From NCBI GenBank assembly GCA_026874595.1, contig CM049316.1, positions 75,685,676 through 75,749,675 of the forward strand: a stretch of 64,000 nt of DNA. The letters are read 5' to 3'. Shown here one piece after another: positions 6,705 through 54,004 of the stretch. The stretch is from Sipunculus nudus. Its lineage: Eukaryota > Annelida > Sipuncula > Golfingiida > Sipunculidae. Under the pieces are notes generated by a model that did not search any database, had not been told where the DNA came from, and saw nothing but the letters and a program-made list of their open reading frames with translations. Within the stretch, counting starts at the first letter, position 1. Every line of letters begins with the position of its first letter. Position numbers and translations under genes: made by a program.

Positions 6705-9700
6705 ATGTCGCCACTGTACGTTGTGCCCCTGTCCCTTCTGCTTCTTGCTGCCCCCGGGTTCGCGGCCCCAGAATCAGCGAGAGAACTGGAGAGAGGTAAG
6801 GTTTAAATTTACTACGTGCGTGTCAAACATTTTATGAATTAGACAAACTGTGAATATTATAAACTGAAATATTTTAAATATATGAAGACTTAAAAAATTG
6901 CTATATTGAAAGACTTGTAAAAGATGTTTAGAAGATGGGTTCATTAATTTACACTGAAAGATACAGATGCTGGAGAATATAAATAAATAAAACACAATAT
7001 TTCAAAGAAAAGTACTATTAGATTATTTTTGTAAAATAATTTAAATTACAGTGAACCCAGAAGACGCTGCTGGTCTCCGACCGGTGGCTCCTCCTAGGGG
7101 TGCACGACCAGTTACTACACCTTGGACTCAATGTGACAAAAAATGCGGTGGTGGCAAGAGAACCAGAATTTATAACGGACGTAAAGAGGAAATGAGCTGC
7201 AACAACAACCCCTGTACACCTGGTGAGTACACTATGACATACAGACAATGAGCTGTAAAAACAGCCCCTGTACATCGGGCAGGTACAATGTGCAATACAT
7301 AATAAATTCAGCTGTAACAGCAACCCCTGTACACACTGTATACATACGATGAGCTGTAATGGCAAACCAATGACACCAGGTAAGTAAAATATGATATACA
7401 GAAAATGTCCTGAAACAGCAGCCCGCGTAGACCTGTTGAGTACAATATAACATATAGAAATTGAGCTGTAACAACAACCCCTGTATACCTGTTCAGGAGA
7501 GGGTATGTATATTTAAGTTGGCATTAGATACGAAATAAATATAGCACGGCCTCAGTCTCTGCAGCTAAAACAAACAGTTTTCTCGGTGCAAGGCTTAATT
7601 TTAGTTACAAGGTTGCCAGCCATTTTTATAATTATGAATCCATATCCATAACCTCTTCTATATTATGGTTTTGTTTGCATTCTATCCGTCATTGTCCTTT
7701 TAATTGTATATATTTTAGTAGTTTCCTCACGAAGCAGCAGTATACCGGTTTGGCCTTTCCGGGATTTCTTCGTAGACTTTATACCCAGTTCGATCTGGCT
7801 TTATTATATTTGCACTTTATAAATAAAAAATGGCATATATAATGCTGGAAATATTTACCATACGAAACATTCCACGCCTCAACTATTCTATGGTCCGGTG
7901 ATTTTCAATGTAATAACTTGTTAACTGTCCTTATTGTATTCATTTTATAGTAATTATGTGTTGTTGCCATTTAGCCGTTGGTTCTAATACACAATTATTT
8001 CTGGTATTCGTGATGCAATATTTTTCCATCGTTAAGTAATCTATATATTTATGGATACATATGATTGGCTGATTATAAACAGAAAGAAAAAAAATTAAGA
8101 TAATGTTTTTCTAATATCAGTTCCTCTACGCTGCAAACTGGATTTGGTCTTTGTTCTGGATACTTCGGGGTCCGTCAGAGAATCCAACTGGTGGAGGGTA
8201 AAACAGTTCGCCATTGACATAGTCAGGTCACTTCCGGTCAGCCAGAGTACCACTAGGATTGGAGTTGTGACGTATTCGTCCGGCGTCTTCATCAAATTCC
8301 ACCTGGACCAGGGCAACAGTCTGGCAGCTGTGGAGAGCGCCATCTGGGGGTTGCCTTACCAACCAGGCGGCACGAACACCGCTGGAGCACTCGAGAAAAT
8401 GAGGACCACCATGTTCACAGCCGGAAATGGGGATCGCGCAGGCGTACTAAATGTAGGCATCTTAGTGACAGATGGATGGTCCAACAACAGACAATCTACA
8501 ATCTCGCAGGGAAACCTGGCAAAACAAGCTGGCATCAAGATGTACACAGTTGGTAAGTCTCTGAGACGTTTTATTTCGATAAGCTATGCTGCTACACTTT
8601 CCGTGTAAATATATCACAACAAGAAGTCGATTTTCTGCCCTCACAGCCTCAAAATACAGATGAGCACCGAGCTTTCGTTGTGTTTCATAAAGATATTACA
8701 AAATAAGGCGAAAAAAAGCACTGAGGTACACGAGTACTTGTTCTGTGATAATGAATCCAATTTAAAACGAATACCTCATATTTAGACTTACAACTCGTAA
8801 CCTGAAATAATGTATGTTTAACAGATAATAAAAGTTCCTGATTGGTTGGAAGATAAGTGCAGTCTGCACAAAATTGAGAGTTATCCACGCATTCATATAT
8901 ACCTCAGTTTCTTAGTGTATATATTAAATCATATATTATTTCATGTTTGAACAGGTATTGGGTCCAATGTGAATGTCAACGAACTAAAAGCCGTCGCCAG
9001 TGACCCTGATTCTACATACTACCACCAGGTGGCAGGGTTCTCCGCTCTTCAGACCATTGTACGGAGCCTGGTCAAGAGTGCCTGTTGTAAGTGTAGGGAA
9101 TTTGTATACTGGATTTTTAAGTGTGGTATTATATTTTATAATAAACTGGAACAGATCAGACATTGACAGCACAGGTATATGATTGTCAGACCTATATACA
9201 CTGAGTCGGTAAAGAAAAAAAAAATAGAGGCCTGATTCAAAACTCATCCCTTATTATTACTAGAATATTTCTGACACATTATAGTTTCTCAAAATTATGA
9301 AAGGCAATGCCATCAATATGATAATAAAACGTTTATGAAACATTGATACATTGTCACGATCTGATATCATTGCAACGATCGTGTTGTCTCTAACAGGAAT
9401 TACGCTCTTTTTACATAAACTGTCATTTGCCGAAGTATAATTGATTTCAAAAGCGATTGGATGTTTGGCTCGTTACTAAATATATAATGATATACGTGTA
9501 TTTTGTTTTCAACTTAAGGAACTTGTTATGGCAAATGGTTATTTCATGATATTATTTTATTTTAGTAGCGCTATTAGACTAATCGACACATTGATGTGTA
9601 TGTATAATTTGTCGCTGATTTTCCTCCTTTAGCTTCCTCGACATCTACCACCTGCTGTAATATATGCGGTGATCCTCATTACAATACGTTTGACGGACAA

Positions 9701-12700
9701 ATGATCCACTACCAAGGGACATGCAAATACAACCTGGCCACGCCTGCTGGAAAAGAGTTTCGTATAGAGGGCGCCAACGAGAATCGCTACTCAAGTTCAC
9801 ATGTCAGCTTCCTTAAATATATTGATATCACCTTTGGCGGAGTGACAGTGCGTCTCGACAAACACAAAGTGCTAAAGGTAGGACTCTATTTTTTACATGT
9901 CATCGTTTATCACTCGTTATTTTTGCTATGACTGATTAAACATTATTTGATCCAGGTTTACCTTAAAACAGGGCTAACATATATATTAATGATAGTGTCC
10001 ACATTAATATAGAGCAAGGTTCGGAATATATTTGACGTAGTTGTTTTCGTTAGGTCATCATACACGGACAACAACATGGTTGTTCTATAACACGGAATCA
10101 AAATACTTCCCCTTTTACTATAGTTATATCTATGTACTGATAAGCATACTTTGTTATGTGTGGGGAAAGTGTCATATAGTGAATAACGATAATGTGGCAC
10201 GACCTATTGCCATTATAAAACCTGCCTCAATACTGTTAGTCTGAACATGGTCATTTTTATGCCCCCGCCACAAAGTGGCCGGGGCATATAGTTTTACCCA
10301 TGTCCGTCATTCCGTCATACCGAAATCAAACAGTTGTACGGACTTTTTTTCGCAATGCCTGCAGATATTGGCCTGATTTTTGGTGTGTAGGCAGATAATG
10401 ACCAGTTACAGATCGAGTTCGCGTTTCGTCCCGGTTGACCTACTTTTGACCGTTTTACGGCTCCTAAACTTAGAAACTTTCATGAAAAATAGAAATTTTC
10501 ATGACAAATACACATGTACGGACTTTTTTTCTCAATGCCTCCAGATATTGGCCTGATTTTTGGTGTGTGGGCACATATTGACCAGTTACAGATGGAGTTC
10601 GCGTTTCGTCCCGGTTGACCTACTTTTGACTGTTTAACGGCTCTTGAACATAGAAAATTTCATGAAAAATATAAATGTTTATGACAAATACACATGTACG
10701 GACTTTTTTTTCGCAATGCCTGCAGATATTGGCCTGATTTTGGTGTGTGGGAAGAAAATTGACCAGTTACAGATCGAGTTCGCGTTTCGTCCCGGTTGAC
10801 CTACGTTTGACCGTTTTACAGCTCCTAAACTTAGAACATTTCATGAAAAATATAAATGTTCATGACAAATACACATGTACGGACTTTTTTTCGCAATGCC
10901 TGCAGATATTGGCCTGATTTTTGGTGTGTGGGCAGATAATGACTAGTTACAGATCGATTTTGCATTTTGCCCTTGTTGACCTACTTTTGACCATACGACA
11001 CCTCCCGAACTTAAAAAAAAAATTTACAAAATTTAACAAATGTTTCTAATTTGCCCCAGGCGGGGGCATTCGTGTCGTTCCGACACATCTAGTCATAACC
11101 ATAAGTAATGAAATTCAAACGTACATTAATCAATGTAGGCTCTGTTAAGTAAACCATATATTGACTTTGCGATGTATTAAGAATTGTTCAGCATAACAAG
11201 TAGACTGTTCCTGAATATCTTTTTACTGTGGCATTCAATTACAGGTAAACGGAGTCGTTAAAAGCGTTCCTCACACCACGGCTAATGGTATCTATATAGA
11301 GCTGTCCGGTGGTTACCTGGTCGCCACTCTTCCGAATGGAGTTGTGGTCAGGTATAACGGTAACGCTTGTGGCAGAATCTGTGTACCTTCAACTTACCTG
11401 AACATAATGACCGGTATGTGTGGTAACTATGACAACAATGCCGTGAACGACCTACGTACAGCTGCTGGACAACAAATGCCTGCTACCGCTGCAGGATATA
11501 AACAGATCGGAGACAGCTGGAAAGTATATGATCCGGAGAATCCAAGGTAAGTGTCCTAATGAAGTCAAAGCATTTTCCTTGAACAATTTTTGAAAACCTG
11601 TCCCACATATTCAGAATCTGCAGGTTTCTATACTTGTGCACATTACGATGGTATACGACTGATGATTCGATGAGAATACCTTTACTTTCATTATATCAGT
11701 CCTCATTTAATTAAGTAAGATTGCATGATTGAGTGGCCTTACAGTCCCTTTTCTATTTTGTGTGTTAAACTTCACACATTTTTTAAGAAACTGATTTTGC
11801 ATTCAGTAGCTTGGACCGCTTCTGACTATCCATCCTTTTTACTTTTGGATGTTATGGTATTTTATGGAAAACTGATTCCAATCACTGCAGGCAGAACAAG
11901 TTAATATAATGTTAATTCTATCTAAATAGTTTAGTGACTAGATGTTTCACTAATATATCACTTGGGCGTAAAAGCAGCTGAAGCCCGAGTAACTGGAATG
12001 GTGTTAAGAACAGTGATGGAATGACAATGAAAAATTACTGTTTTCTGGTAAACTGTTTAGGTATAAAAATCCCACTGTGATGGAAAAAAATAATCAATCA
12101 GTGAACTATTTTTTTTTCTTTTTTGGTAACTGTAATTTCATTATTATACAAAGCTTATATTTCAATTACAGATGTATCAACAACGACTACCAGACGCCGA
12201 CATGTCCCAAAGACGTGTTGACACGTGTGAGGTCACGATACTACTGTGGTCTTCTCTTGGAGAGTTATGGTCCCTTCCGCGCTTGCGCAACTATACTCGA
12301 TCTGAAGAAATTTTTCGAGGCCTGTGAGCAGGACGTTTGTGCCGCTTACCCAGATGGTCGACTGATGAAAGCCATGGCTTGTAACGCACTGGAAAATGTG
12401 GAGGAAGAGTGCGTTGGTCAAGGGTCAGAGGTCACTGACTGGCGAAGACTCTCAGGCTGCAGTAAGTTTATTGAAGGATTTACATAAAGTAATGACTGGT
12501 CATCTAGTATTCCCTACACTTGAATTTGATATTGATAAATATATAATTGCTGCCTTTAACCAATTAATACGCATTATAATCATGAAACTGTATCCTGCTT
12601 TACATCTTAGTTTTGATAAAACAATAATCGCCTGAGGATATGCGTATCATTTACAACACCAGGACATAATTTGGTTAAGATTTTACATCATGGGGTGAGA

Positions 12701-14951
12701 AAAAAACGTGAAACGCAATGTCCATTTTCCGCACCTACAAAAATAGAATACCCGTCTTTTCGTGTAACCTATACGTTTCAAGATTTATTACGGCTTTTGA
12801 TCTCTATTTCAGTCTCATATATAATTAGTTACGTAAACAGCTGGCACACAATAAAATAATTAAATTCTGCTTTTTTTTATACAGGTTCTGCGCCACAGTA
12901 CGGTCCATGGTCAGCGTGGGGCAAGTGTTCTACAGGAAGCTACAAGGTGTGTTACCAGGTCCGGACGAGGGAATGTCTTTCTGGCGACTGCTCTGGTCCA
13001 TTTAGCCAGAGGCGACCTTGTATTTGTGGAGGAGGTGAGGTCACATGAATATTCATATCATAAACATTGTTAAAGTAATGATTATACCTAGAGTGGAACA
13101 TAAAGTTTACCGATGTTGGTAAGATATTTGGTTTGCATTTAAACGACACGAGGCCTCATAAATGCAGGTAAAAGATCAATAAACGTTAACCCTATCTGCT
13201 TACAAAGAGTAAACATGTATAGTAATTGCATTTATACGTGTTATCAAAAACGTTCCCCTGCACACAGACGTATGGCTTCTCCTCTTCACTGGGATAAATT
13301 GTAAGTACTTTTTTTATATCCAGGAGTGGACGGTGGGTGGAGCACCTGGGGTTCGTGGAGTTCATGTATAGGTGCACCTTGTGGGCGCGGTTACAGAACC
13401 CGGAGACGAAGTTGTACAAACCCCCGTCCCTCAGCCGGAGGCAAACCTTGCAGTGGCGCCTCCTACCAACGACAATCATGTACAGTTCCATGTGCAAATG
13501 GTAAATATATGCACACATTATGCAGTTAAGTTACTACTACAACTTTTGACGCTGGATACAGGGGCGTTTGGGTTCATAACTTGTCTATTTTGCTTGTCTA
13601 ACTTGTCTTGACTGTGTCAAAACTCGTCATGTAATGTGCCATTCACACCTATCAGTAGAGACTGGACGATACTGTTTTTTTTTACATATATCCGTTAACA
13701 GAAGCTAGAAAATAAATTGTAAAGATAATCTGTAAAGATATATAAATAAAATATTTGAAAAGTTTTTCACGCAGGAACTAAATGCGCCTCCTGATACATA
13801 AATGATATATACATTATTGCTTTAAAGATCACACTTTCGAAAGCTCCGTATTGAAGTGACAGGTAAAAGGAGACGCCCAAGTTCTAAAATAAGGAATTTT
13901 ACAATTTTTAAATGCCTTGTTAATAATTCTTTTGTCTCAAAAACGATGACGGCCTGCTCTCAAGGTTGAAATTTAGATTTTCTGATTCATCTGTTTTTCA
14001 GATTGTGAACGTTGCAGCCCGTATATTAACAACAGATGTTACCTGCCTCACAAAACAACCTGTACACAGTACTACGTCTGCTACCGTCGCCCGGTCCTCC
14101 AACAAGCCACTCTCCGTCCTCCTGTAACGACCCGCCGATTGGTGGCGCCACCGGCTCCTTATTCATACTACAAATTTACAGGAATGTGTCCACCGAGGAC
14201 AGGATGGAATCAGTTCACCAAAAAGTGTGATTCGTCGTTGTATCCATGTTACCACGCAGGTAATTACACCTACTGAGTCAAGCAGGTCCAATAACTGAAA
14301 TGATCAAATAGGTTGACATTTCAAGCTAGCAAGTTCAGATATAGCCCAATCGCAGTAAAGTGCACTTACACTGTGCTTGTACATGACGATTCGTTGAAAT
14401 AGTAAAGTGATTTCTCACTAGGGGTCACCATGTTAAAGATGCTGTACACAATCCTGTTCTGACATACCCATGGTGTTTCACTTAACTTATGGGTCTGTGT
14501 TATATTTGAAGACATTAGGTACCGATAGCACAGTACCCTTCCAAGTTTAATATATGGAAAACATCCTGTGTAGCAAATTAGATAATTAAAGGCCTAATGT
14601 AAATGAGACGTGTCAGATATAAAAAAGATGTCCCCGTTAAATGGGTGACAATTCCTTACTTAATAATATTTACTCACATGAAGAAGGAAGCAATGTCACA
14701 AGCAGATGTGTATAGATTATAGATACTTATAAAATAATCGTGATAACTTAAAGTGAGTGCAATATAAATATTAACTTAATGATTTGAGGTAAGGCTGTTG
14801 CTTATTTATAACACTCTGTATTCAGGTTTAAGCTGATTTTTTCTTTATGCCAGGATTCAATGGCACGCTTCCCTATTAAATCATCTTGCTATGTTTATTT
14901 ATTTTAATAGTGCCGCGGGAGCCAGCCGAGGGGCTTCCTGAAGAGGCCTGA
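6705..14951 (+). CDS. Secreted VWA-vWD-C8-TSP1-chitin-binding matrix protein
   Basis: Coding exons are 6705-6795, 7052-7222, 8121-8552, 8955-9086, 9633-9877, 11245-11546, 12172-12461, 12885-13034, 13324-13500, 14002-14259 and 14911-14951. All junctions are GT-AG; the 2289 nt give 762 residues plus stop. Residues 1-20 are a signal peptide (Leu-rich core, AxA-like site). Residues 31-87 hold a short TSP1-like module. Residues 88-275 are a VWA domain with a complete MIDAS (DTSGS at 101-105, GGTNT, TDG). Residues 276-457 are a vWD domain (GDPHY at 288, GMCGNYD at 414). Residues 458-554 are a Cys-rich C8 module. Residues 555-604 and 605-663 are TSP1 repeats with WxxW motifs. Residues 664-749 are a peritrophin-A-like chitin-binding module. 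Such modules are typical of shell-matrix, byssus and other extracellular proteins, so an extracellular structural role is inferred. I do not recognise a named orthologue. The ATG lies directly after the splice acceptor. Confidence 0.88.
7195..7490 (+). repeat. Degenerate ~56-bp tandem copies of an exon end and its splice donor
   Basis: The last ~28 bases of the TSP1-like exon plus the first ~28 bases of the intron are repeated about five more times. Copies begin near 7249, 7310, 7350, 7406 and 7462. Each starts like GAGCTGTAACAACAACCCC. The copy near 7350 keeps a strong donor-like AGGTAAGT. Reading on from the exon meets a stop at 7249-7251, so the copies are intronic. Confidence 0.75.
10258..11092 (+). 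mobile_element. Helitron-like non-autonomous element with internal tandem repeats
   Basis: The left end is an imperfect palindrome at 10258-10288 (ATGCCCC...GGGGCAT around GCCAC-AAA-GTGGC). The right end has a GGCGGGGGCA segment complementary to the left end. It then has a GTGTCG/CGACAC hairpin (11072-11086) and CTAG at 11089-11092, followed by T. A hairpin followed by CTAG before T is what Helitron 3' ends show. Bivalve genomes are known for Helitron-like elements of the pearl/DINE type with a central tandem array. No protein is encoded. The 5' TC boundary is not clear, so an inverted-repeat MITE remains possible. It lies within the vWD intron of the host gene. Confidence 0.6.
10331..11040 (+). 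repeat. 180-bp tandem repeat, four units
   Basis: The phrase TGTACGGACTTTTTTTCGCA recurs with a spacing of about 180 bases, starting near 10335, 10514, 10694 and 10875. Units differ by a few per cent, and the last diverges towards its end. The array is the core of the Helitron-like element. Confidence 0.9.
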
Positions 14952-15146: not shown

Positions 15147-15152
15147 AATAAA
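15147..15152 (+). terminator. Poly(A) signal of the VWA/vWD/TSP1 gene
   Basis: AATAAA lies about 195 bases after the stop at 14951. A second AATAAA near 15487 could be used instead. Confidence 0.55.
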
Positions 15153-15849
15153 TGTTTTACTGCATTAACATAAACTATGATTTCATAATGTAAGTAATAC
15201 TCTCAGCTCAGTTTTTATATTGTTTGTATCTATAGCTGTGCAACGTATCACATTGTCATTGTCAGCAGTATGGCGTGCTGAAGAAGTCTTAGGGGTTGTC
15301 GCATGTCCGCTGGGATCATGTGATAACAAGTGGTTAAATATGTGACATACCTGTGTTAATTAGTTTATGCAATCAAATGAACAAAATATTGTTTAATAAG
15401 ATATATTTTATTATTTCATTATTCTCTTCTTATCCACCTGACTGGATAAAATGTTTGTATGTTGCACTATAGAGTATATATCTATTTAATAAAACCGATT
15501 TTGAAAAATCCATTTGTTTTCCGTAATTTCTTACATAGGCGTTTTAAGTGAATCCATCCTTCTCAAGTCTTTGCAGGGACTAATATTTGTTTTTATTTGA
15601 TAGTGGCTGTCAGATGATGCATTTATTTTTAGAATATAGCAGGCAACTCGGAGAGGTCAACAATGTATGATCAAACGATCGAACTGAGATGGACTGAAAA
15701 CGGGCTATTGCTTGTACTATCAGTGTCTCACAACTTGTGTCGGCATAACTAACAATGTTTGAGATGCTGGGAAGTTTTAAAAGTTTACTTACTGTGGGTC
15801 ATGAGGAGTGAATGGAAAAAAAATAACCTGATATAACCAGACATATTCA

Positions 15850-18540
15850 AAGAGCACATACCACCACCAACACAAACAGATAGCACTCAGGGAGCATATA
15901 CCGCCACCAAAATAAACACACAGCAATCAGAGAGCACACACCTCCTCCAAGACAACCATACGGTACTGGGAAGGAAAATACCTCGACCAAGACAAATAGA
16001 CTACACTCAGAGAGCACATACATCCACCAAAACAAACAGACACCCCTGAGAGACCACATACCTACACCAAGAAGAAACTCAAAACGCACGCAATTCCACC
16101 AACACAAACAGAGAACACTCAGTGAGCACATACCACCACCAACACAAGCAGAGAACACTCAGAGAGCACATACCACCACCAACACAAGCAGAGAACTCTC
16201 AGAGAGCACATACCACCACCAACACAAGCAGAGAACACTCAGAGAGCACATACCTCGACCAAAACAAACAGAGAACACTCAGAGAGCACATACCTCCACC
16301 AGCAGAAACAGAGAACACTCAGAGAGCACATACCACCACCAGCACAAACAGAGAACACTCAGAGAGCACATAACACCACCAACACAAACAGAGAACACTC
16401 AGAGAGCACATACCACCACCAACACAAACGGGGAACACTCAGAGAGCACATACCACCACCAACACAAACGGAGAACACTCAGAGAGCACATACCACCACG
16501 AACACAAACAGAGAACACTCAGAGAGTACATACCACAACCAACACAAACAGAGAACACTCAGAGAGGACATACCACAACCAACACAAACAGAGAACACTC
16601 AGAGAGCACATGCCACTACCAACCCAAACAGAGAACACTCAGAGAGCACATACCTCCACCAGCACAAACAGAGAACACTCGGAGAGCACATACCACCACC
16701 AACACAAACAGAGAACACTCAGAGAGCACATGCCACCACCAACACAAACAATCAGGAATCGGAAACACTCGGAGAGCAGAAACCTCCACCCACAGAAATT
16801 AACAGCAATCAGAGAAAACAAATATCCGCCCATACGTATAAGCAGCACACAGAGCATGCTAACCTCATGGTGAAAAGAGACAGAGCCAAAGAGCACATAC
16901 ATACAGTAACACAAACAGTCGGGGCTCATAGACCATATACCCCCATCAAGATAAAAAAACAACACTCAGAGAGCACGTACCTCCACCAACACAAACAGAG
17001 AACACTCAGAGAGCACATACCACCACCAACACAAACAGAGAACACTCAGAGAGCACATACCACCACCAACACAAACAGAGAACACTCAGAGAGCACATAC
17101 CACCACCAACACAAACAGAGAACACTCAGAGAGCACATACCTCCACCAGCAGAAACAGAGAACACTCAGAGAGCACATACCACCACCAACACAAACAGAG
17201 AACACTCAGAGAGCACATACCACCACCAACACAAACAGAGAACACTCAGAGAGCACTTACCACCACCAACACAAACAGAGAACACTCAGAGAGCACATAC
17301 CACCACCAACACAAACAGAGAACACTCAGAGAGCACATACCTCCACCAGCAGAAACAGAGAACACTCAGAGAGCACATACCACCACCAACACAAACAGAG
17401 AACACTCAGAGAGCACATACCTCCACCAGCAGAAACAGAGAACACTCAGAGAGCACATACCACCACCAACACAAACAGAGAACACTCAGAGAGCACATAC
17501 CACCACCAACACAAACAGAGAACACTCAGAGAGCACTTACCACCACCAACACAAACAATCAGGAATCGGAAACACTCGGAGAGCAGAAACCTCCACCCAC
17601 AGAAATTAACAGCAATCAGAGAAAACAAATATCCGCCCATACGTATAAGCAGCACACAGAGCATGCTAACCTCATGGTGAAAAGAGACAGAGCCAAAGAG
17701 CACATACATACAGTAACACAAACAGTCGGGGCTCATAGACCATATACCCCCATCAAGATAAAAAAACAACACTCAGAGAGCACGTACCTCCACCAACACA
17801 AACAGAGAACACTCAGAGAGCACATACCACCACCAACACAAACAGAGAACACTCAGAGAGCACATACCACCACCAACACAAACAGAGAACACTCAGAGAG
17901 CACATACCACCACCAACACAAACAGAGAACACTCAGAGAGCACATACCACCACCAAGACAAACAAAAAGCACTCCGGGAGCACATGCCTCTACAAATACA
18001 AATAAACAACACCCAGAGAGCACATATATGCACCAAGAGAAACCGACGGCCCCGAGAGAGTACATACATCCACCAAGAAAAACAGACAGCACTCAGAACT
18101 CACATACCTTTATAAACAAAGAAAGACAGGGCGCAGAAAGGACAAAACTCCACCAAGAAAAATAACAGAAAGCATTGAAGCAGCATTAAAAGTCTACCGA
18201 GATAAAGAAACACATTTCGTAGAACGCACGCTCCTAACCAACTTAAAACTGATAACACTGGGGCAGCATATACTTCCAGAAATACAAAAATAATCAGGTT
18301 TCGGAGAGTGCATGACTCCACCAGGACATATTAACATCCTGGTGAGTACATGCCTCCACCAACGCCACTAGACAAAGCTGCGACATCACATACCTCCACC
18401 TAAACAAAGACACAGCACTCGGAGAGCACATACCTCCACAAAGACAAAAAAAGAACCACTCGAAACGCACATAATTCCATAAACACAAATAGATAATACT
18501 CACAGAGCAAATACCTACAACAACACAAACAACCAGGGCT
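15850..18540 (+). repeat. 40-bp minisatellite with higher-order structure
   Basis: The unit reads approximately ACAAACAGAGAACACTCAGA plus GAGCACATACCACCACCAAC. Units are nearly identical in the centre and diverge towards both edges. A ~240-bp interruption (AATCAGGAATCGG to CAAGATAAAAAAAC) occurs at 16751-16990 and again at 17558-17795. This gives a higher-order repeat of about 807 bp. Because 40 is not a multiple of 3 and all frames lack stops, the array yields a 432-residue ORF with a 40-residue period and several antisense ORFs. Confidence 0.95.
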
Positions 18541-34924: not shown

Positions 34925-35455
34925 TCTGGGAACATAGGTACCGGGGAACATTGATACCGGAGAACATAAGTACCGGGGGATATTGATACCGGGGGAACAT
35001 ATATACCGGGGAACATTGATACTGGGGAATATAGGTACCGGGGGACATTGTTTCTGGGGAACATAGGTACCGAGGAACATTGATACCAGGGAAACATAGG
35101 AACCGGGGATTATTGACCCATGGGGAACATAGGTACCGGGGAACATTGATCCCCGGAGAACATAGGTACAGGGGACATTGATCCCGGGAGAACATAGATA
35201 CCGTAGAACATTGATCCCGGGGGAACATAGGTACCGGGGGACATTGATCCCGGGGGAACATAGGTACCGGGGGACATTGATCCCGGGGGAACATAGGTAC
35301 CAGGGAACATTGATCCCGGGGGAACATAAGTACAGGGGAACATTGATACCGGGGGAACATAGGTACTGGGGAACATTGATACCCGGGAAAACATAAGTAC
35401 GGGGGAACATTGATACCGGGGGAACATATGTACCGGGGAACGTTGATACTAGGGG
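34925..35455 (-). repeat. ~36-bp minisatellite, inverted relative to its neighbour
   Basis: About 15 units of the form GGGGGAACATAGGTACC plus GGGGGACATTGATCCC are present. The period is a multiple of three and several frames lack stops. This produces minus-strand ORFs up to 214 residues repeating CSPGINVPRYL. I do not regard these as genes. Confidence 0.9.
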
Positions 35456-35609
35456 ACATAAAGGCGCGTTGACGCATTGGGCATGGATAAGGCATATTGA
35501 GATATTTGATTTTTACTTCCATTAAATCATACAACTGAGTGTGCTATTTTGTTGCGACGAGTCGATAAAACCCTGGGTACAAAATATGCAAAACGATTTT
35601 TTGTGGATG

Positions 35610-45218: not shown

Positions 45219-46980
45219 TTTCATGTTGTTAAGCGTAAAATCCACAGTGTTGTGCTCTAAAACGCTATAACAAGCAACCATTTGCATAAAAATGACTATG
45301 AGAAAAAATATTCATTAAATAAAAATTAAGACAAGCATTTAAATATTGCTTAGGCTAGATAAAACATGCACATAATCCATTAATATACATTACCTATTTT
45401 ACTAAACCAATAAACGACATTAAATCTATAAAAGTGTAGATAAAATTACGGTATAAAATTGAAAATCTGCACGTATGCAAAATCACAGCTAATCGAAATA
45501 CTGCACAAATAAGTATGTCTTAAGCATTTTTTTAAAAGCAGTTAGGCTCTCAGCTTTTCTTAATTATAAAGGAAATGAATTCCACAAAGTGGGACCTGCC
45601 ACACAAAATGCTCTTTGAGCAACCATGGAAGACTTTGTATGTGGAACAAAAAGTAAGTCATGATCGGCCGATCTGAGGCATCGAAATGGTGTGTACGAAT
45701 GAATTATATCCTGTAAGTAGACCGGGGCCATGCGATGTTTGGTCTTGAAAAGTAGTATGGCCACCTTGAATTTAATAGGCTGACTTACAGGGAGCCAGTG
45801 CAGCCCCCGCAATACAGGTGTAATATGATCATACTTGTCACATCCACTTAGTATACGGGCTGCGCTGTTTTGAACTCGCTGAAGCCTCTGAATTAATGAA
45901 GCCGGATACCCAAGAAGTAAAGCATTTCCATAATCTAACTTGGTGGTGACAAAAGCGTGGATCAAACGCTCAAGAGAGCGTTGATCCAAATACGCTTTTA
46001 TTTTATAGATGTTGTGGAGATGCATGTAGGCCACACGGCATATGGTGTTCACATGCTGCTCCATGGTGGAATGAGAATCAAAATAAACACCAAGGCTTCG
46101 AATCCACTGAGATGGTTGAACATAGTGTTCGCCGATTGGAAGATTTGGACATTTAATCTTTGTCGCCAAATGTATAGGTGTAATCAGCATCACCTCTGTT
46201 TTATCATCATTTATTTTCAAGCTGTTTTTGGCCATCCACTTACGTACTAAACCAGCAGTAGCCTCCATATATGTGATGTTATTGCTGAGGTGCTCAGGCC
46301 TGAAAATCAAATACAAAGTAGAATCATCAGCATACATACTATAAAAACCACGCTCATGCAGTAAAGTACCTAAGGGAGCATATAAAGAGTAAAGAGGACA
46401 GGTCCTAAGACAGAGCCCTGGGGCACACCACAGTCCAATATTTGTAACTTAGACTTAATCCCTTCAATCTGGACTGACTGGCTACGTTTACAAAGATATA
46501 ATGCAAACCATTCTAGGGCAGTGCCAGTAACTCCCATTGACCGAAGTGTATCAAGCAAGATCTCATGACTGACCGTATCAAAAGCAGCTGACAAGTCAAT
46601 CATGACTAAAAGTACACAATTATTCTCTCCAAGAGCACACTGGATGTCATTATGAACTCTCAAAGTAGCAGTCTCTGTGGAGTGTCCAGCCCGATAAGCT
46701 GATTGAAATGGCTCCTCTAAATTATAATCTACAAGCGGAGTCGTGAACACACGATCTTCTCTATCACGTTGGAAACAAACGCCAAATTAGAGACAGGTCT
46801 AAAGTTTTTTTAAATTTTCAGGATCAAGTGTAGATTTCTTAATAAGCGGGGTGACGAGAGCGGTTTTGTAGTTCTGTGGAAACACACCAGTTGAAAGTGA
46901 CAGGTTAACCATGTGTGTAATGACAGGAGTTAATTCCTCGGAACATGCCTACAGCAGTCTGGTCGGTAGGGGTCAAGGTC
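45160..46980 (-). mobile_element. CR1/Jockey-type LINE, 3' half, copy 1
   Basis: On the minus strand 46750-46370 encodes reverse transcriptase motifs (DLSAAFDTVSH, GVPQGSVLGP). A different frame at 46337-45564 begins with the YADD catalytic motif and continues to the C-terminal GPTLWNS region. The 3' end carries an (ATT)n tail at about 45160-45217. The element is cut at 46980 by the duplication border, so the endonuclease and 5' part are missing here. Confidence 0.85.
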
Positions 46981-48031
46981 AGTAATTACTGGTTTCATTC
47001 ATATTGTATTGATTTCTCTTGTTTTATTTTTATGAAGATTATGAATGAATACGGTATTACATCATTAATCTTTTCATATAATATCTTTACCACCTTTTGA
47101 TTTTTTAATTCTCTGAAAGTTTTAATTGTGATGTGTAAAATGCTTTGTTTATACAGGAAGACATGTACATAAGTCTGACCGGCTACATTTGTAATCCTGC
47201 ATTAAATATATTTAAACCAAAGAGGTGTGTGCTTTGGCCGGACCGGTTCACAATATTGGGCTTGAACGGGACGAAACGCTAATTTAAAAAAAAAGCCGGA
47301 TCGCTAATGCTGTCCGGACCAGCCTTCCTAATGAATTTAATTGCTTATGATACAGATAAATTGGATTTATTAGATGTCAACTGATAACCTGACCCTTATT
47401 ATGGAGAGTGTGTTTGTTGTTTGAAGTTTGTCACAGAAAGATTTCTTTACCACAATAAATGTTCTAAAACATTTGCAATTATTTTTTCTCAACACGTCAG
47501 TTTTGAGTTTACGGTAAGATGCTTAAATTTATGGAGAAACAATATGTGTGTTTGCTGTTATAGTGAAGGTATTAATCAGGAGTGACACGGAAGGCCTGGG
47601 AGATAAACTAAGAAAACATATGCATAAGAATATGTAAATAGGGTCTTGAATGAATTTATTGTTTCATTATTTTATAAAATGTTATAAACTTTATTTAACA
47701 TTGACAGTATTGATTTCATAGTATGTTTTTTAACATTTTATCAGCTAAATCACTGGAAGAAAGTAGGAATTATTTACTAATGGATATTATTTCTTCAGAT
47801 TGTGGTACCCCCTTAACTTTGATCAGACTATTAAAACAGAAATACGACTATTCTATAATGTTAATACTTTTTTTTTATAATTATCACATGTATCAAGTTA
47901 ATGGTACCAGACTACTTAAAATATGACCAGACCCGGTAGTTGCCAGAAAGTTGCTAAAAGACAAACCAGCTAAAGGACTCGGGGAAACTACAATTCCTCG
48001 CTTCCCTTCACTTTCAGCAAATCAGGATACC

Positions 48032-48835
48032 ATGGCAACACCTGAGGTTTCCTCTCCCTTTTGGTGCTCCATTTGCTTCTACAGCAAAGAAGGACTACAG
48101 CCCGGAGCCCTGTTGTGTCTGCATTCGTTCTGAGATACATTTCTCAATGAATGGCGCGAAAAGCGTCACCGAGATGGACATTAGACCAGAGCCCAGGTAG
48201 ACTGCCCCACCTGTCGAACATACCTATACTACAATCTGGTGACATTTCAAGCTTACCTATTGATAATATTGTTCAGCAGATTGCTGATTACATCAATAAA
48301 GATTCGAAATCTTCCTGCCAGGTATGTAAAATGAAGAGTGGAAAGTCAGCGTGCATAAGGTGCTGAGTTTTCTTGTGCGTGGACTGCGGCGAGGAACACA
48401 TCAAATCGCGTTTGTTCTCGTCTCATGTACTGAGCACAAATATATGTGAGCTTCCTGGGGCGGCACTTCTTTGCATCTGTACCACGTGTTTGTGTGCTTT
48501 TTTTTGTTTACATTGTGTTAATGAAGACCTGCACAAGGACAACTGCCTTGACGAAATGTCATACGGGATACAGAAGATTAAAGAACATGTGATCCAATGT
48601 ACAAGAAAATAAGTAACTGCTAAGAATAGGAATCAAAGAGATGACAGTAGAAAGAAGACAATTCGAACGATTCCTTTGTATGGAAGACTTAAGAAGTTCA
48701 CTTGATTTGATTAAAAACGAGGTTGAGAGAATTAAAAAGAAAAAAAAAAACATGAACAATCTTGTGAAGATATCATTGACAAAGTGTTGTTTAAAGAGAA
48801 TGCAAGGATCACGAAGAACGGGCATCCGCCGCTAA
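48032..48835 (+). pseudogene. TRIM-like RING/B-box pseudogene, copy 2
   Basis: Equivalent to 43558-44360, with the same stops and frame change. One extra A near 48749 alters the frame of the downstream Lys-rich part. Shared lesions show that decay preceded the duplication. Confidence 0.75.
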
Positions 48836-49654
48836 TTTAAACGGAAATCAACTACTTGAGGAAGATGAGGCAGGGGTTCTTGGTAAGTTGATTTCCGTTG
48901 ATATCCCGAATAATGAAATGACCGACAAATTCAGTCACTGTAATGAAATGTCTCCAATGTCACGTAAAACGTTGCCTTTTATGACAGTCCTATATTCATT
49001 CGTACTATTTTGAAAATGTTTAAACAGAGAAAAGGGGCCTGCCTTGTCAGTTGAGGATTCGAGGAATGGCAGGAATATACATGTTTAACATGTGTAGCCA
49101 GAGTACATGAGGGACTAAGAGACAACTCTAGCTGAAGTGAATTGAGACTTTAGCAGATCAATCTCATAATGATATGAGGTAGCGACCATTTCTGTACCAG
49201 AAAAGTTTGAAGTCAACATTCGGTAACTTGAATGAAGAAAATGCTTTGTATCACCCCGATTAGCGCGTTGCAATATATTGCGTTATGTGGTATTGCATTG
49301 TGATGCATGTTCCGATATCTTTCATTGTATCTAATCGTAGGAAATAAAAACAAAGACAACAGGAAAACACAAATAGATCCATGTATGACGAACTAGGAAA
49401 ATGCAAAAAGTACCTACTACAGTATTTATTTTTTATGAATATTTAAATATCAAGCTCAGGTGAGGCGCTATCATCCATTTTGTAAATAGGTAGATAGTGC
49501 AGAAGTGTCTCAATGAAACAGGGCTTGTCCGGTAAAAAAGACTCAAGCATTCAGGTAGATATCGAGCGACATTTACTTGTTTTCTGTTTGCTACCAGGAA
49601 AGTTTGAATTACAACATAGTCAGGGTCTTCTTTATAATAATAATAATAATATTT

Positions 49655-49687
<33 letters not shown>

Positions 49688-50032
49688 TTTCATGTTGTTA
49701 AGCGTAAAATCCACAGTGTTGTGCTCTAAAACGCTATAACAAGCAACCATTTGCATAAAAATGACTATGAGAAAAAATATTCATTAAATAAAAATTAAGA
49801 CAAGCATTTAAATATTGCTTAGGCTAGATAAAACATGCACATAATCCATTAATATACATTACCTATTTTACTAAACCAATAAACGACATTAAATCTATAA
49901 AAGTGTAGATAAAATTACGGTATATAATTGAAAATCTGCACGTATGCAAAATCACAGCTAATCGAAATACTGCACAAATAAGTATGTCTTAAGCATTTTT
50001 TTAAAAGCAGTTAGGCTCTCAGCTTTTCTTAA

Positions 50033-51428
50033 TTATAAAGGAAATGAATTCCACAAAGTGGGACCTGCCACACAAAATGCTCTTTGAGCAACCATGGAAG
50101 ACTTTGTATGTGGAACAAAAAGTAAGTCATGATCGGCCGATCTGAGGCATCGAAATGGTGTGTACGAATGAATTATATCCTGTAAGTAGACCGGGGCCAT
50201 GCGATGTTTGGTCTTGAAAAGTAGTATGGCCACCTTGAATTTAATACGCTGACTTACAGGGAGCCAGTGCAGCCCCCGCAATACAGGTGTAATATGATCA
50301 TACTTGTCACATCCACTTAGTATACGGGCTGCGCTGTTTTGAACTCGCTGAAGCCTCTGAATTAATGAAGCCGGATACCCAAGAAGTAAAGCATTTCCAT
50401 AATCTAACTTGGTGGTGACAAAAGCGTGGATCAAACGCTCAAGAGAGCGTTGATCCAAATACGCTTTTATTTTATAGATGTTGTGGAGATGCATGTAGGC
50501 CACACGGCATATGGTGTTCACATGCTGCTCCATGGTGGAATGAGAATCAAAATAAACACCAAGGCTTCGAATCCACTGAGATGGTTGAACATAGTGTTCG
50601 CCGATTGGAAGATTTGGACATTTAATCTTTGTCGCCAAATGTATAGGTGTAATCAGCATCACCTCTGTTTTATCATCATTTATTTTCAAGCTGTTTTTGG
50701 CCATCCACTTACGTACTAAACCAGCAGTAGCCTCCATATATGTGATGTTATTGCTGAGGTGCTCAGGCCTGAAAATCAAATACAAAGTAGAATCATCAGC
50801 ATACATACTATAAAAACCACGCTCATGCAGTAAAGTACCTAAGGGAGCATATAAAGAGTAAAGAGGACAGGTCCTAAGACAGAGCCCTGGGGCACACCAC
50901 AGTCCAATATTTGTAACTTAGACTTAATCCCTTCAATCTGGACTGACTGGCTACGTTTACAAAGATATAATGCAAACCATTCTAGGGCAGTGCCAGTAAC
51001 TCCCATTGACCGAAGTGTATCAAGCAAGATCTCATGACTGACCGTATCAAAAGCAGCTGACAAGTCAATCATGACTAAAAGTACACAATTATTCTCTCCA
51101 AGAGCACACTGGATGTCATTATGAACTCTCAAAGTAGCAGTCTCTGTGGAGTGTCCAGCCCGATAAGCTGATTGAAATGGCTCCTCTAAATTATAATCTA
51201 CAAGCGGAGTCGTGAACACACGATCTTCTCTATCACGTTGGAAACAAACGCCAAATTAGAGACAGGTCTAAAGTTTTTTTAAATTTTCAGGATCAAGTGT
51301 AGATTTCTTAATAAGCGGGGTGACGAGAGCGGTTTTGTAGTTCTGTGGAAACACACCAGTTGAAAGTGACAGGTTAACCATGTGTGTAATGACAGGAGTT
51401 AATTCCTCGGAACATGCCTACAGCAGTC
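50033..51428 (-). pseudogene. LINE reverse transcriptase, frameshifted
   Basis: The fingers/palm part (51219-50839) has FQSAYRAGHSTETATL, the DLSAAFDTV catalytic block and GVPQGSVLGPVLFTLY. The frame then changes before MYADDSTLYLIF, so the catalytic YADD lies in another frame (50806-50033). Upstream, 51428-51220 also carries stops. RT copies RNA at the target site in LINE retrotransposition; this copy is inactive. Confidence 0.85.
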
Positions 51429-52110
51429 TAGTCGGTAGGGGTCAAGGTCGCATTGCTTTGAGGCAGATGCTGAGATAATACGCCCGATTTCGTCCAGGCA
51501 GGAGCCAAATTCCTCATGGGAGTAAGTACGCGAGTGCTCGAAAATGTAGGTCCAGAGTAAGAAATGTCTGCTCGAATGGACTCCCTGATATCCTGTATCT
51601 TGGAGACAAAGAAGGAACTGAAAACTTCAACTAGGTCAGTTACTGGCTTTCTTGGAAGAGGTACCGTCTTATCCTTACCCAGAAAGGTGTTTACCACTCT
51701 GAACAACTCCTTCGAGTTGTCTTGACACTCTGCAATCTTGTTACTATAGTAACTAGTCTTTGGCAGTTTAATTAGGCGATTGACCTTCAATCTCTGTTTA
51801 AAGAACATGTCACGATGGACTGCAAGTCCGGTTTTCCTCCACAACCGTTCCAACTGTCTACGTAATTGCTTTGCAGCCCTGACCTCATATGTATACCATT
51901 CTGCATCTTTTTGTATGGTAATAACTCGCGTTTTCACAGGGGCATGGGCATCAAGCAGGGTAGACAGTTCTGTGTTGTAGAGAGAGACAAGATCATTCGG
52001 AGAGTAGGCACTGACATCAGTAGACAGCACAGATCTCTGAATGTCACTGGCTAGATCTGTCACATTCAAAACTTTTAGCTTTCTATACGAGATAGTTTTT
52101 TTTTTTGGCT

Positions 52111-53167
52111 TTAACAGTCTCTGTAAGCACAAAGTAGAAAAAAAGGATAATGATCCGGAAATCCGTGGTCCTGAGACTCCACATTGCTGACAGGGTTATC
52201 ATTTGATGGTGAGAGGACAAGATCAAGTGTGTGGCAACTACGATGTGTGCTCTGACATACATGCTGTACGAGACCGAAGCGCTTAATCAAACTAAGGAAT
52301 TCTCGTGCATTTCTGTCATCATTTTTTACATGAATATTAAAAAAACAGAGGATCACAATTTGTTTAGAACACGACCTGATATGCTGTTCAAGGAATCAGC
52401 AAATTCAGTTAGAAAGAGATTATAAGTAAGAGCATTCTTTCCAGATGGAGGAGGCCTATACACCACAAATACTCTGGCTGATTGTTTCACTGAAATATCA
52501 CAAACTAAGACCTCAAAAGATGAAAACTGGCCTCTACTGTTGATATTCACACGTTTGGCATCAATATTCTCATGATATACAATTGGTATGCCACCACCTC
52601 TAGCCTTTCTGGCTTGTTGTAATACTTTATATCCGGGAGGGGTCATGTCATGAAGGATCACATCGTCACGAGTGTCACCCTTGAGCCAGGTTTCAGTAAG
52701 GGCTAGAATATCTATTCCCAGGTTAACAAGGAAATCATTTATAGCTATTGTTTTATTACAGACTGACCAGGGATTTAGGAGACATATATGTATGTTCTTA
52801 CTTCTGTTAACAGCCGATGCATAGACTGGGTGGTATTTACCGCACGGGGTACACTGACAAGATTGTCCCAACACTGGGTTATTTGTTTACCAGGAAAAAT
52901 TACAGTCCTTGGGGTGATAATGGGTGGAATTGGTCTTGCATGATACTGACCTGCCCTGGTTCCCCTCAGAGTGTGTTTATGAATACCAAAGCTTTTCAGA
53001 GTATTCCATAATTCTGATAATGGCGAGTGGTCAGTGTTTACCCTAAGTGCAGGTGACCTCATCTCAAAAGCTGGTCCACACTGTACTTGAGCCCCACTTT
53101 GGTCATAGTTGACTGCCACGCAACTACAATGGTGGAATACGGTTGGAATGTCCAGTGATATCCACAT
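52111..53167 (-). pseudogene. LINE endonuclease region, frameshifted
   Basis: 52874-52353 carries NPWSVCNKTIAINDFL and DILALTETWL, where the Glu is the usual catalytic residue of APE-like endonucleases. The expected GDFN motif reads CFFN at the start of the next frame (52356), and the expected SDH reads PDH, so active-site residues are lost. The N-terminal part (53167-52775) is in a third frame. Confidence 0.8.
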
Positions 53168-53195
53168 AGATTGGTCGTCAACAAAGCATAAGAAA

Positions 53196-54004
53196 AAAGC
53201 ATTTTATCTAAAAAGTGACGCCTATGCTTCTAAAAGCGTCTTCTAATGGTACAACCTAACCTTATATAAGCAACTGTAACATAGTTATATAGCAATTCTT
53301 TGTGAAAATACACAACCAGTCCAGCAATTAGACAGGTAATAGTTCTAGAATCTGACCCTAGTTGAAAATGCCTGCAAATGTAAGGAATTGTAGCATGAGT
53401 GGGATTTTATTGGGAATGTTTCCCTCAGTGCCAGTGAGCCTTCAAGGCTTTTTGAGGTCATTGGAACTATTGTTTCAACAGGTTGAGCAATATGGGGAAG
53501 CTATCCCTTGATTTTTCGTTTTCGTACTTCGTGATATGTCTTGCAGGAAAACAGAAAACAAGAAAAAGTCGCCCGACAGAGCAAGCAAAACCATAAGTAA
53601 TGATGATGCAAACATATCTATCAATGGATATTTTTTTTCTTAAATGTGCATTTTGGCCTTACCTTCCCATGTTCCAGATAATGAAGATTTGATCTAACTA
53701 GCTGAGACGTTTGTGTAACTGTCCTGTCATGAAAAAAAACCAGAATAATCTTTATAAGAGTAGCGTACGATCTATGCGCAGGTGTGTGTGACATATGGCG
53801 GTTTTCCGCTGTCAGGTGCTTTGTACCAGCTATCATTGCTATGTCATAGTGATAGGAATAACGGGGCTAAACGCCGACAAATGGCGCTTTGATATCCGTA
53901 AAAAACTATGGTATTCTCTGCTTGCACCGTCACATTATCATCCTCGCTGCAGATAATTGTTCTTATATCGACCGGGTCGTGTATGTACTTAACTCGATCG
54001 AATA
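53196..54004. other. Intergenic, no gene seen
   Basis: Only short ORFs without domain features are present between the LINE 5' end and the inverted-repeat element at 54005. Confidence 0.45.

What the first reader, a model, noticed from the sequence alone, without database searches (positions are those of the whole stretch)
6705..14951. Secreted protein joining VWA, vWD-C8, TSP1 and chitin-binding modules
The 11 coding exons splice exactly in frame to 762 residues with an intact MIDAS, vWD signatures, a C8 module, two TSP1 repeats with WxxW motifs and a peritrophin-like end. Known mollusc shell proteins such as Pif and BMSP join VWA with chitin binding but, as far as I recall, not with vWD-C8 and TSP1 in this order. 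It would be able to bind metal or collagen-like ligands and chitin in one chain.
Basis: partly seen in the sequence, partly recalled or inferred. Interest (0 to 1): 0.75.

Follow-up and report, generated by a model that had tools for sequence, protein, structure and literature searches.

The report
Modular chitin-binding matrix protein gene
This looks like a real, intact animal gene for a secreted protein that strings together adhesion, mucus-protein, thrombospondin and chitin-binding-like modules; it has relatives elsewhere in the same genome and carries the signature of proteins that cut their own chain, so it may be a self-nicked linker tying chitin to other matrix proteins.

Summary
Eleven exons (6705-14951) splice at GT-AG sites into 762 residues. 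Pfam finds VWA, VWD, C8 and TSP1. The C-terminal module scores under the CBM_14 cut-off, but a paralogue's passes.

Corrections: a third, incomplete TSP1-like module precedes the VWA; the exon-8 TSP1 is weak.

It is not a one-off. The same assembly holds more loci with this exon order, mostly partial or damaged. One, on C3, repeats all 11 exons in an open frame, 89% identical, dN/dS 0.14. That argues for one coding gene without RNA. Module borders lie at phase-1 introns, as exon shuffling leaves them.

New: the VWD keeps GDPH, and a Gln that aids autocatalytic Asp-Pro cleavage in FCGBP, in 7 of 7 close copies read.

Best reading: a secreted, self-nicked adaptor between chitin and matrix proteins. 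Tissue, cleavage and chitin binding are untested; the species was not identified. Papers opened showed VWA+TSP1+chitin-binding shell proteins, none with VWD-C8. A new variant of a known kind.

The parts
6705..6795 (+). Exon 1: signal peptide (by eye) and short propiece, phase 0-1; in-frame TAG just upstream of the ATG
   Evidence: conserved in copies B, C and H
7052..7222 (+). Exon 2: TSP1-like module, 4 Cys, phase 1-1
   Evidence: PF00090 20.8 bits, cut-off 21.6; TSP1_CCN 21.7, cut-off 27; phases
8121..8552 (+). Exon 3: VWA, first part, phase 1-1
8159..8173 (+). MIDAS DxSxS (DTSGS, residues 101-105); T172 and D205 follow in the same exon
   Evidence: DTSGS in 6 of 6 close copies whose exon 3 was read (A-E, H)
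8955..9086 (+). Exon 4: VWA, last part, phase 1-1
9633..9877 (+). Exon 5: VWD, first part, phase 1-0
9668..9679 (+). GDPH (residues 288-291), candidate autocatalytic Asp-Pro cleavage site; Gln at +14 from the Asp (residue 303) also present
   Evidence: requirements from PMC10880436
11245..11546 (+). Exon 6: VWD, second part, phase 0-2
11410..11421 (+). TGMC in place of the CGLC seen in FCGBP, mucins and VWF: no CxxC
12172..12461 (+). Exon 7: C8 module, phase 2-1
   Evidence: E 4.8e-13
12885..13034 (+). Exon 8: divergent TSP1, WSAW motif, phase 1-1
   Evidence: PF00090 9.7 bits, below cut-off
13324..13500 (+). Exon 9: canonical TSP1, WSTW/WGSW motifs, phase 1-1
   Evidence: 36.6 bits
14002..14259 (+). 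Exon 10: peritrophin-A (CBM_14)-like module, phase 1-1
14091..14159 (+). 23-residue proline/arginine-rich stretch inside the CBM_14-like module (mostly absent from paralogue C, present in H)
14911..14951 (+). Exon 11: last residues (13 by translation match) and stop
   Evidence: copy H encodes 12 of the same 13
15147..15152 (+). AATAAA, candidate polyadenylation signal (others at 15488 and 15911)

Best explanation
A gene for a secreted, basic, cysteine-rich extracellular-matrix adaptor of about 81 kDa. Shown by sequence: signal peptide - TSP1-like - VWA with intact MIDAS - VWD-C8 - weak TSP1 - TSP1 - CBM_14-like, built from modules framed by phase-1 introns, and low dN/dS against one full-length duplicate. 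Inferred: the VWD nicks its own chain between Asp289 and Pro290, giving a 29 kDa N-terminal (TSP1-VWA) and a 52 kDa C-terminal (VWD-C8-TSP1-TSP1-CBM) piece, which stay joined by a disulfide from the first VWD strand. The C-terminal piece anchors on chitin; the metal-dependent VWA and the TSP1 modules bind matrix glycoproteins or collagen-like partners. The protein thus works as a hardened cross-link between a chitin scaffold and the protein matrix (shell, periostracum, byssus/adhesive or a chitinous gut lining).
For: Exon chain and domains. Full-length second copy: 11 of 11 exons, frame open, 10 of 10 introns GT-AG, dN/dS 0.14 overall and 0.10-0.28 by module (no significance test). In partial copies B-F, 32 of 32 exons among exons 1-8 with both ends projected keep AG/GT and a length equal to the window's or changed by a multiple of 3; dN/dS 0.15-0.19 against the window copy over the shared exons. 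8 of 10 introns phase 1, the other two inside the VWD-C8 unit. CBM_14 passes Pfam's cut-off in paralogue C; the 8 Cys of the aligned module are invariant in 3 copies. GDPH and Gln(+14) in 7 of 7 close copies read; Asp, His and, in part, that Gln were shown by mutation to matter in FCGBP D10 (PMC10880436). FCGBP chains 8qci_B, 8r0t_B and 8r0t_C start at the Pro of this motif in the alignment. VWA proteins are abundant in pearl-oyster nacre and knock-down of two disordered it (PMC5597905, passages); Pif's VWA binds five nacre proteins (PMC11291548, abstract).
Against: No RNA, proteome or binding data here. GDPH is common among the other VWD exons read from this genome, so it may simply be ancestral; MUC2's was not cleaved in one expression system. 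The distant paralogue G has GNSW instead. The -4 Cys that would hold the first strand is Tyr in copy B, which has a Cys at -5 instead, so the tether may shift. No CBM exon was found at E and F, in the stretches read or in the genome-wide rows, so chitin anchoring is not a family-wide trait. Chitin binding is untested, the window's module is under the Pfam cut-off, and no structure could be predicted.
Confidence: 0.55

Rival explanations
1. A mucus-network protein of the FCGBP/zonadhesin type: it stabilises gut, gill or pedal mucus, and the chitin-binding module merely ties it to a chitin-framed mucus or gut membrane, as is predicted for Ciona Ci-GFM1.
For: VWD-C8 is closest to FCGBP among solved structures; limpet pedal mucus carries VWD proteins, one listed with a TSP1 (PMC7333891 passages); Ci-GFM1 joins D assemblies with a chitin-binding domain (PMC6109156 passages).
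Against: Only one VWD-C8, and no TIL or cystine-knot hit; no CxxC; no long Pro/Thr/Ser stretch in the 762 residues by eye; VWA is not part of FCGBP (recalled).
Confidence: 0.25
2. A secreted recognition or opsonin protein of haemocytes/haemolymph that binds chitin of fungi or parasites and recruits partners through VWA and TSP1; copy number and C-terminal variation would fit an immune family.
For: At least 9 loci counting the distant G, with varying C-termini and broken copies; VCBP-C of Ciona shows that a CBM_14 protein can act so.
Against: dN/dS of A versus H is 0.10-0.28 by module, with no sign of fast evolution in that one comparison.
Confidence: 0.12
3. The exons belong to two neighbouring genes, or the chain is a chance product.
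Against: Same 11 exons in the same order on another contig with open frame and low dN/dS; frames and phases match at the 10 junctions; exons 1-8 repeat at C11:74.06 and 74.08 Mb and exons 2-9 at 75.23 Mb.
Confidence: 0.03

Closest known systems
Pif/BMSP family (VWA + CBM_14 + laminin-G-like shell proteins; PMC11291548, PMC5597905)
   Same: Signal peptide, VWA, downstream CBM_14-like module; exon 10 (E 0.075) lies about where those authors put CBM_14L1 (1e-5 to 1, independent E-value)
   Different: VWD-C8 and TSP1 between VWA and CBM; no laminin-G hit; VWA clade not tested
Tridacna crocea Tcr_684094 (TSP1, CBM_14, VWA; PMC8217771) and Haliotis laevigata idb_25730 (VWA, TSP1, chitin-bd_II x2, ConA-like; PMC6003135)
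   Same: VWA, TSP1 and chitin-binding in one shell-matrix protein
   Different: No VWD or C8 listed; order of Tcr_684094 not seen (figure not held); sequences not compared
FCGBP / IgG Fc-binding protein and gel-forming mucin D assemblies
   Same: VWD-C8 pair; GDPH and, in the D10 segment of PMC10880436, Gln(+14); best PDB match 8rde, E 2e-165 for VWD-C8
   Different: One VWD-C8 only, no TIL hit, no CxxC, extra Cys pair CGRIC; joined to VWA, TSP1 and CBM
Pinctada fucata byssal TSP-1 protein (PMC4597212)
   Same: Signal peptide, TSP1 repeats and a VWA with MIDAS, foot-expressed
   Different: 24 TSP1 repeats and a GGSS region, 191.6 kDa; no VWD or chitin-binding module in the passages seen
PTMP1, proximal thread matrix protein 1 of Mytilus (PDB 4cn8)
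   Same: VWA domain; phmmer E 8.3e-26, best stretch 94-278
   Different: Two VWA domains; no VWD-C8, TSP1 or CBM (recalled)
SCO-spondin
   Same: VWD, C8 and TSP1 in one secreted chain
   Different: TIL and LDLa repeats; no VWA and no chitin-binding module (recalled)

Membership tests
Pif/BMSP family | VWA domain | tested here: met
   147.2 bits
Pif/BMSP family | VWA falls in the Pif/BMSP clade of the molluscan VWA tree | not testable with these tools
   no Pif or BMSP sequences held
Pif/BMSP family | CBM_14 or CBM_14-like downstream of VWA (38 of 50 members) | tested here: met
   as CBM_14-like only; below Pfam cut-off in the window copy, above it in paralogue C
Pif/BMSP family | laminin-G-like region after the chitin-binding module (PifG members lack it too) | tested here: not met
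   no hit; only the short exon 11 follows exon 10
FCGBP / gel-forming mucin D assembly | VWD followed by C8 | tested here: met
FCGBP / gel-forming mucin D assembly | TIL and E modules after C8, repeated assemblies | tested here: not met
   no TIL hit, one VWD, one C8, TSP1 follows C8 directly
FCGBP / gel-forming mucin D assembly | CGLC-type CxxC | tested here: not met
   TG[MI]C in 6 of 6 close copies with exon 6 read (A, B, C, E, F, H)
Self-cleaving VWD (GDPH class) | GDPH with cleavage-supporting Gln | tested here: met
Self-cleaving VWD (GDPH class) | Asp-Pro bond is actually hydrolysed | not testable with these tools
   needs protein
CBM_14 / peritrophin-A | six-Cys pattern and Pfam cut-off | tested here: inconclusive
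   window copy 13.6 bits, cut-off 22.1; spacings 4 of 5 fit (pattern recalled); paralogue C 23.0 bits
CBM_14 / peritrophin-A | binds chitin | not testable with these tools
   needs protein

The most novel reading that the evidence does not exclude
A lineage-expanded family of self-nicking matrix adaptors in which a mucin/FCGBP-type VWD-C8, cut at GDPH but held by disulfide, was inserted by exon shuffling between the VWA and the chitin-binding module of a Pif-like matrix protein. The nick would make a stiff, protease-resistant joint between a chitin anchor and a metal-dependent adhesion head; copies without the CBM exon would be soluble partners of the anchored form.
Probability: 0.3. Interest if true: 0.62.

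Novelty: new variant of a known kind. Interest (0 to 1): 0.48.

Why it matters
Shell, byssus and mucus proteins of marine invertebrates are built from the same modules in different orders, and how those orders arise is open. Here one genome holds several copies of one order that differ by whole phase-1 exons (TSP1 or chitin-binding exon not found in some), with an intact duplicate for comparison, so gain and loss of anchoring modules can be followed directly. The conserved GDPH gives a simple testable prediction for a protein likely to be anchored on chitin, and the purpose of GDPH cleavage is stated to be not yet revealed (PMC10880436).

Tried and rejected
Two-gene or chance chain: rejected by the C3 copy. 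A plain 'two TSP1' count: replaced by one clear, one weak and one extra N-terminal TSP1-like module. Membership in Pif/BMSP: not claimed (no LG hit, clade untested). Search for relatives in viral contigs: no match. PDB search with exon 10: no match at E up to 10. Folding of the C-terminal module (window alone; paralogue C alone; three copies aligned) was never taken by the busy machine, so no model supports the CBM call. COX1 search to place the animal: unanswered twice. The co-location script used all 125 VWD rows but only 88 of the 150 VWA rows, so it is a lower bound. One search translated exon 3 out of frame by my slip and was not used.

Results against: B has an in-frame TAA in the VWA exon; D stops matching within exon 6; the C3:24.39 Mb copy's VWA rows overlap by a few bases as two pieces, which hints at a frame break, and its full DNA was not fetched; J (C17:45.75 Mb) has the VWA but no VWD in the 10 kb read; two further CBM pieces at C11:74.11 and 74.14 Mb hold stops; no CBM exon at E and F; L018 holds 5000 N where exon 3 of F should be; weak exon-11 matches in B and C are 33 and 32 nt against 41, so their ends are unsure.
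Full report
WHAT IS THERE. The start is preceded by an in-frame TAG and AATAAA lies at 15147. Pfam finds VWA (95-267), VWD (284-432), C8 (482-555) and TSP1. MIDAS is intact. There is no N-glycosylation sequon and no RGD; 42 cysteines; the chain after residue 20 is 81 kDa with pI 8.9 (the signal cleavage site is my estimate, no predictor was run).

THE C-TERMINAL MODULE. By itself it only hints at CBM_14 (13.6 bits, cut-off 22.1), and no CBM_14 row appears in the whole-chain scans of the window copy or copy H (E up to 0.01). Cys spacings are 15 (with one extra Cys inside), 5, 35, 12 and 6 (from the positions); four of five fit the peritrophin-A pattern as I recall it, and the 35 is long because of a 23-residue insert. 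Without the insert the score rises to 20.4 bits, still under the cut-off; 0 of 8 shuffles that keep the Cys in place hit CBM_14. Paralogue C, which lacks most of the insert by nature, scores 23.0, over the cut-off. I take it as a divergent CBM_14; chitin binding is untested and no structure could be predicted.

IT IS A FAMILY. The window lies at C11:75685676-75749675 of a 1.43 Gb assembly. VWD exons are many there (125 matches listed; 150 of 284 candidates scored). I fetched 20 stretches and later 7 more. Near copies with the same exon order, as far as each goes: B C11:74.06 Mb (exons 1-8), C 74.08 (1-8 and 10), D 75.06 (2-5 and part of 6), E 75.23 (2-9), F 75.30 (4-9), H C3:24.34 (all 11); I at C3:24.39 was seen only in search rows, and G at C11:69.29 is distant (32-44% identity in its better matches). 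Among exons 1-8 of B-F with both ends projected, 32 of 32 keep AG and GT, and their lengths equal the window's or differ by a multiple of 3. Exceptions: for exon 9 of E and F my projection missed the acceptor, and an AG lies close by; the exon-11 matches of B and C are weak and 33 and 32 nt against 41. Copy H matches 11 of 11 exons, 10 of 10 introns GT..AG, 761 codons open, 89% identical; dN 0.059, dS 0.429, ratio 0.14; by module 0.22 (exon 1), 0.10 (N-terminal TSP1), 0.12 (VWA), 0.13 (VWD), 0.13 (C8), 0.28 (exon 8), 0.10 (exon 9), 0.14 (CBM) (Nei-Gojobori, no significance test). Against B, C, D, E and F the window copy gives 0.15-0.19 over the shared part of exons 1-8; the recent pair B-C gives 0.42 at dS 0.07. 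Some copies are damaged: B has a stop in the VWA exon, D breaks off in exon 6, F has a 5000-N stretch where exon 3 should be. In B and C only a 37-nt match at the 3' end of exon 9 is left (28 nt of it exon, and AT where the donor GT was). The CBM exon was found at A, H, I, C (two pieces) and at two stop-bearing places (7 rows, 10 of 10 candidates scored); not at E or F.

HOW IT AROSE. Eight of ten introns are phase 1 (chance of 8 or more 0.0034 if phases were equally likely). The other two lie inside the VWD-C8 unit, so each module is framed by phase-1 introns, the classical mark of exon shuffling (established knowledge). Loss of exon 9, as in C, leaves the frame intact because its ends are both phase 1.

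HOW IT MAY WORK. VWD-C8 is nearest to FCGBP in the PDB. The motif GDPH (288-291) is present in 7 of 7 close copies read (A-F, H), as is Gln at +14 from the Asp. In FCGBP D10 the Asp and His are needed for Asp-Pro cleavage and Q4094, 14 residues after D4080, contributes in part (PMC10880436, section 2.4); the equivalence is my count. FCGBP chains 8qci_B, 8r0t_B and 8r0t_C begin at that Pro in the alignments. Against it: GDPH is common in the other VWD exons I read from this genome, G has GNSW, and MUC2's was not cleaved in one expression system. Cysteines: compared with FCGBP both the Cys after 'AEL' and the first Cys of CGLC are missing. In VWF these two pair with each other (recalled), so a whole disulfide would be lost. 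The GTC/GAC Cys, the Cys of TG[MI]C, the one at 459 and a new pair CGRIC (399, 403) are kept in 6 of 6 close copies with exon 6 read (A, B, C, E, F, H). The Cys just before GDPH is kept in 7 of 7; the -4 Cys, which lines up with the first-strand Cys of FCGBP, in 6 of 7 (Tyr in B, with a Cys at -5). The window VWD has eight cysteines. So after a cut the 29 kDa N-terminal piece should stay tied to the 52 kDa C-terminal piece, as in FCGBP. I infer an adaptor: chitin anchor at one end, metal-dependent VWA head at the other, TSP1 modules as further contacts. In a pearl-oyster model, VWA proteins with chitin-binding domains are placed in such a role, and knock-down of two VWA proteins disordered nacre (PMC5597905, passages); Pif's VWA interacts with five nacre proteins (PMC11291548, abstract).

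WHAT IS KNOWN. Seen in passages only: Tridacna Tcr_684094 with TSP1, CBM_14 and VWA (PMC8217771), Haliotis idb_25730 with VWA, TSP1, two chitin-binding and a ConA-like domain (PMC6003135), Pinctada byssal TSP-1 with 24 TSP1 and a VWA (PMC4597212), corals with TSP1+VWA and with TSP1+VWD (PMC4890752), tubeworm tube proteins rich in VWA, ChtBD2 and TSP1 domains (PMC8476170), limpet mucus VWD proteins (PMC7333891). Passages without a closer match: PMC7853314, PMC3893171, PMC6337334, PMC6109156, PMC3390340, PMC13114020. More than passages: PMC10880436 (abstract, first part of Results, section 2.4, Discussion) and PMC11291548 (abstract, passages, one Results section). Nine answered searches on domain combinations led me to no paper with VWA, VWD-C8, TSP1 and CBM_14 in one protein, but about a dozen listed papers were not opened, figures and supplements were out of reach, and databases of mollusc proteins could not be searched. 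An automatically annotated orthologue is likely to exist.

VERDICT. Observation confirmed, interpretation improved. It looks like a real and constrained gene, one of a small family, with an unusual but explainable module order and a clear testable prediction. The species, the tissue and both biochemical activities remain open.

Noticed in passing
window 7191-7493 (intron 2): Decayed tandem copies (56-nt unit) of the 3' end of exon 2 together with its donor site; an in-frame TGA follows the true donor, so they look non-coding.
   Followed up: partly
window 10260-11090 (intron 5): Repeat element with 180-nt units (3.7 copies at 10335-10992) between ends resembling CCCCCGCC and GGCGGGGGCAT (by eye); not classified.
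   Followed up: no
window 15847-18108: 40-nt minisatellite, about 56 copies, starting about 0.9 kb after the stop codon; its long open frames (up to 679 codons) look like a by-product of the repeat.
   Followed up: no
window 45564-53203, minus strand: Two nearly identical pieces of what looks like a non-LTR retrotransposon (ORFs 45564-46448 and 50033-50917; endonuclease-like ORF 52353-52886). Pfam was run on 45564-46448 and 52353-52886 only; RVT_1 and Exo_endo_phos, both below cut-off.
   Followed up: partly
window 59391-59993, minus strand: 200-codon ORF weakly like a methyltransferase (PF08242, E 1.5e-4, under cut-off).
   Followed up: partly
window 34928-35460: 33-nt minisatellite, about 16 copies.
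   Followed up: no
G000 C9:14770733-14816901: VWA and VWD exons lie within about 12 kb of each other here too: possible older relatives of the family.
   Followed up: no
L018: 5000 N where exon 3 of copy F should lie; assembly gap or withheld stretch, not known.
   Followed up: no
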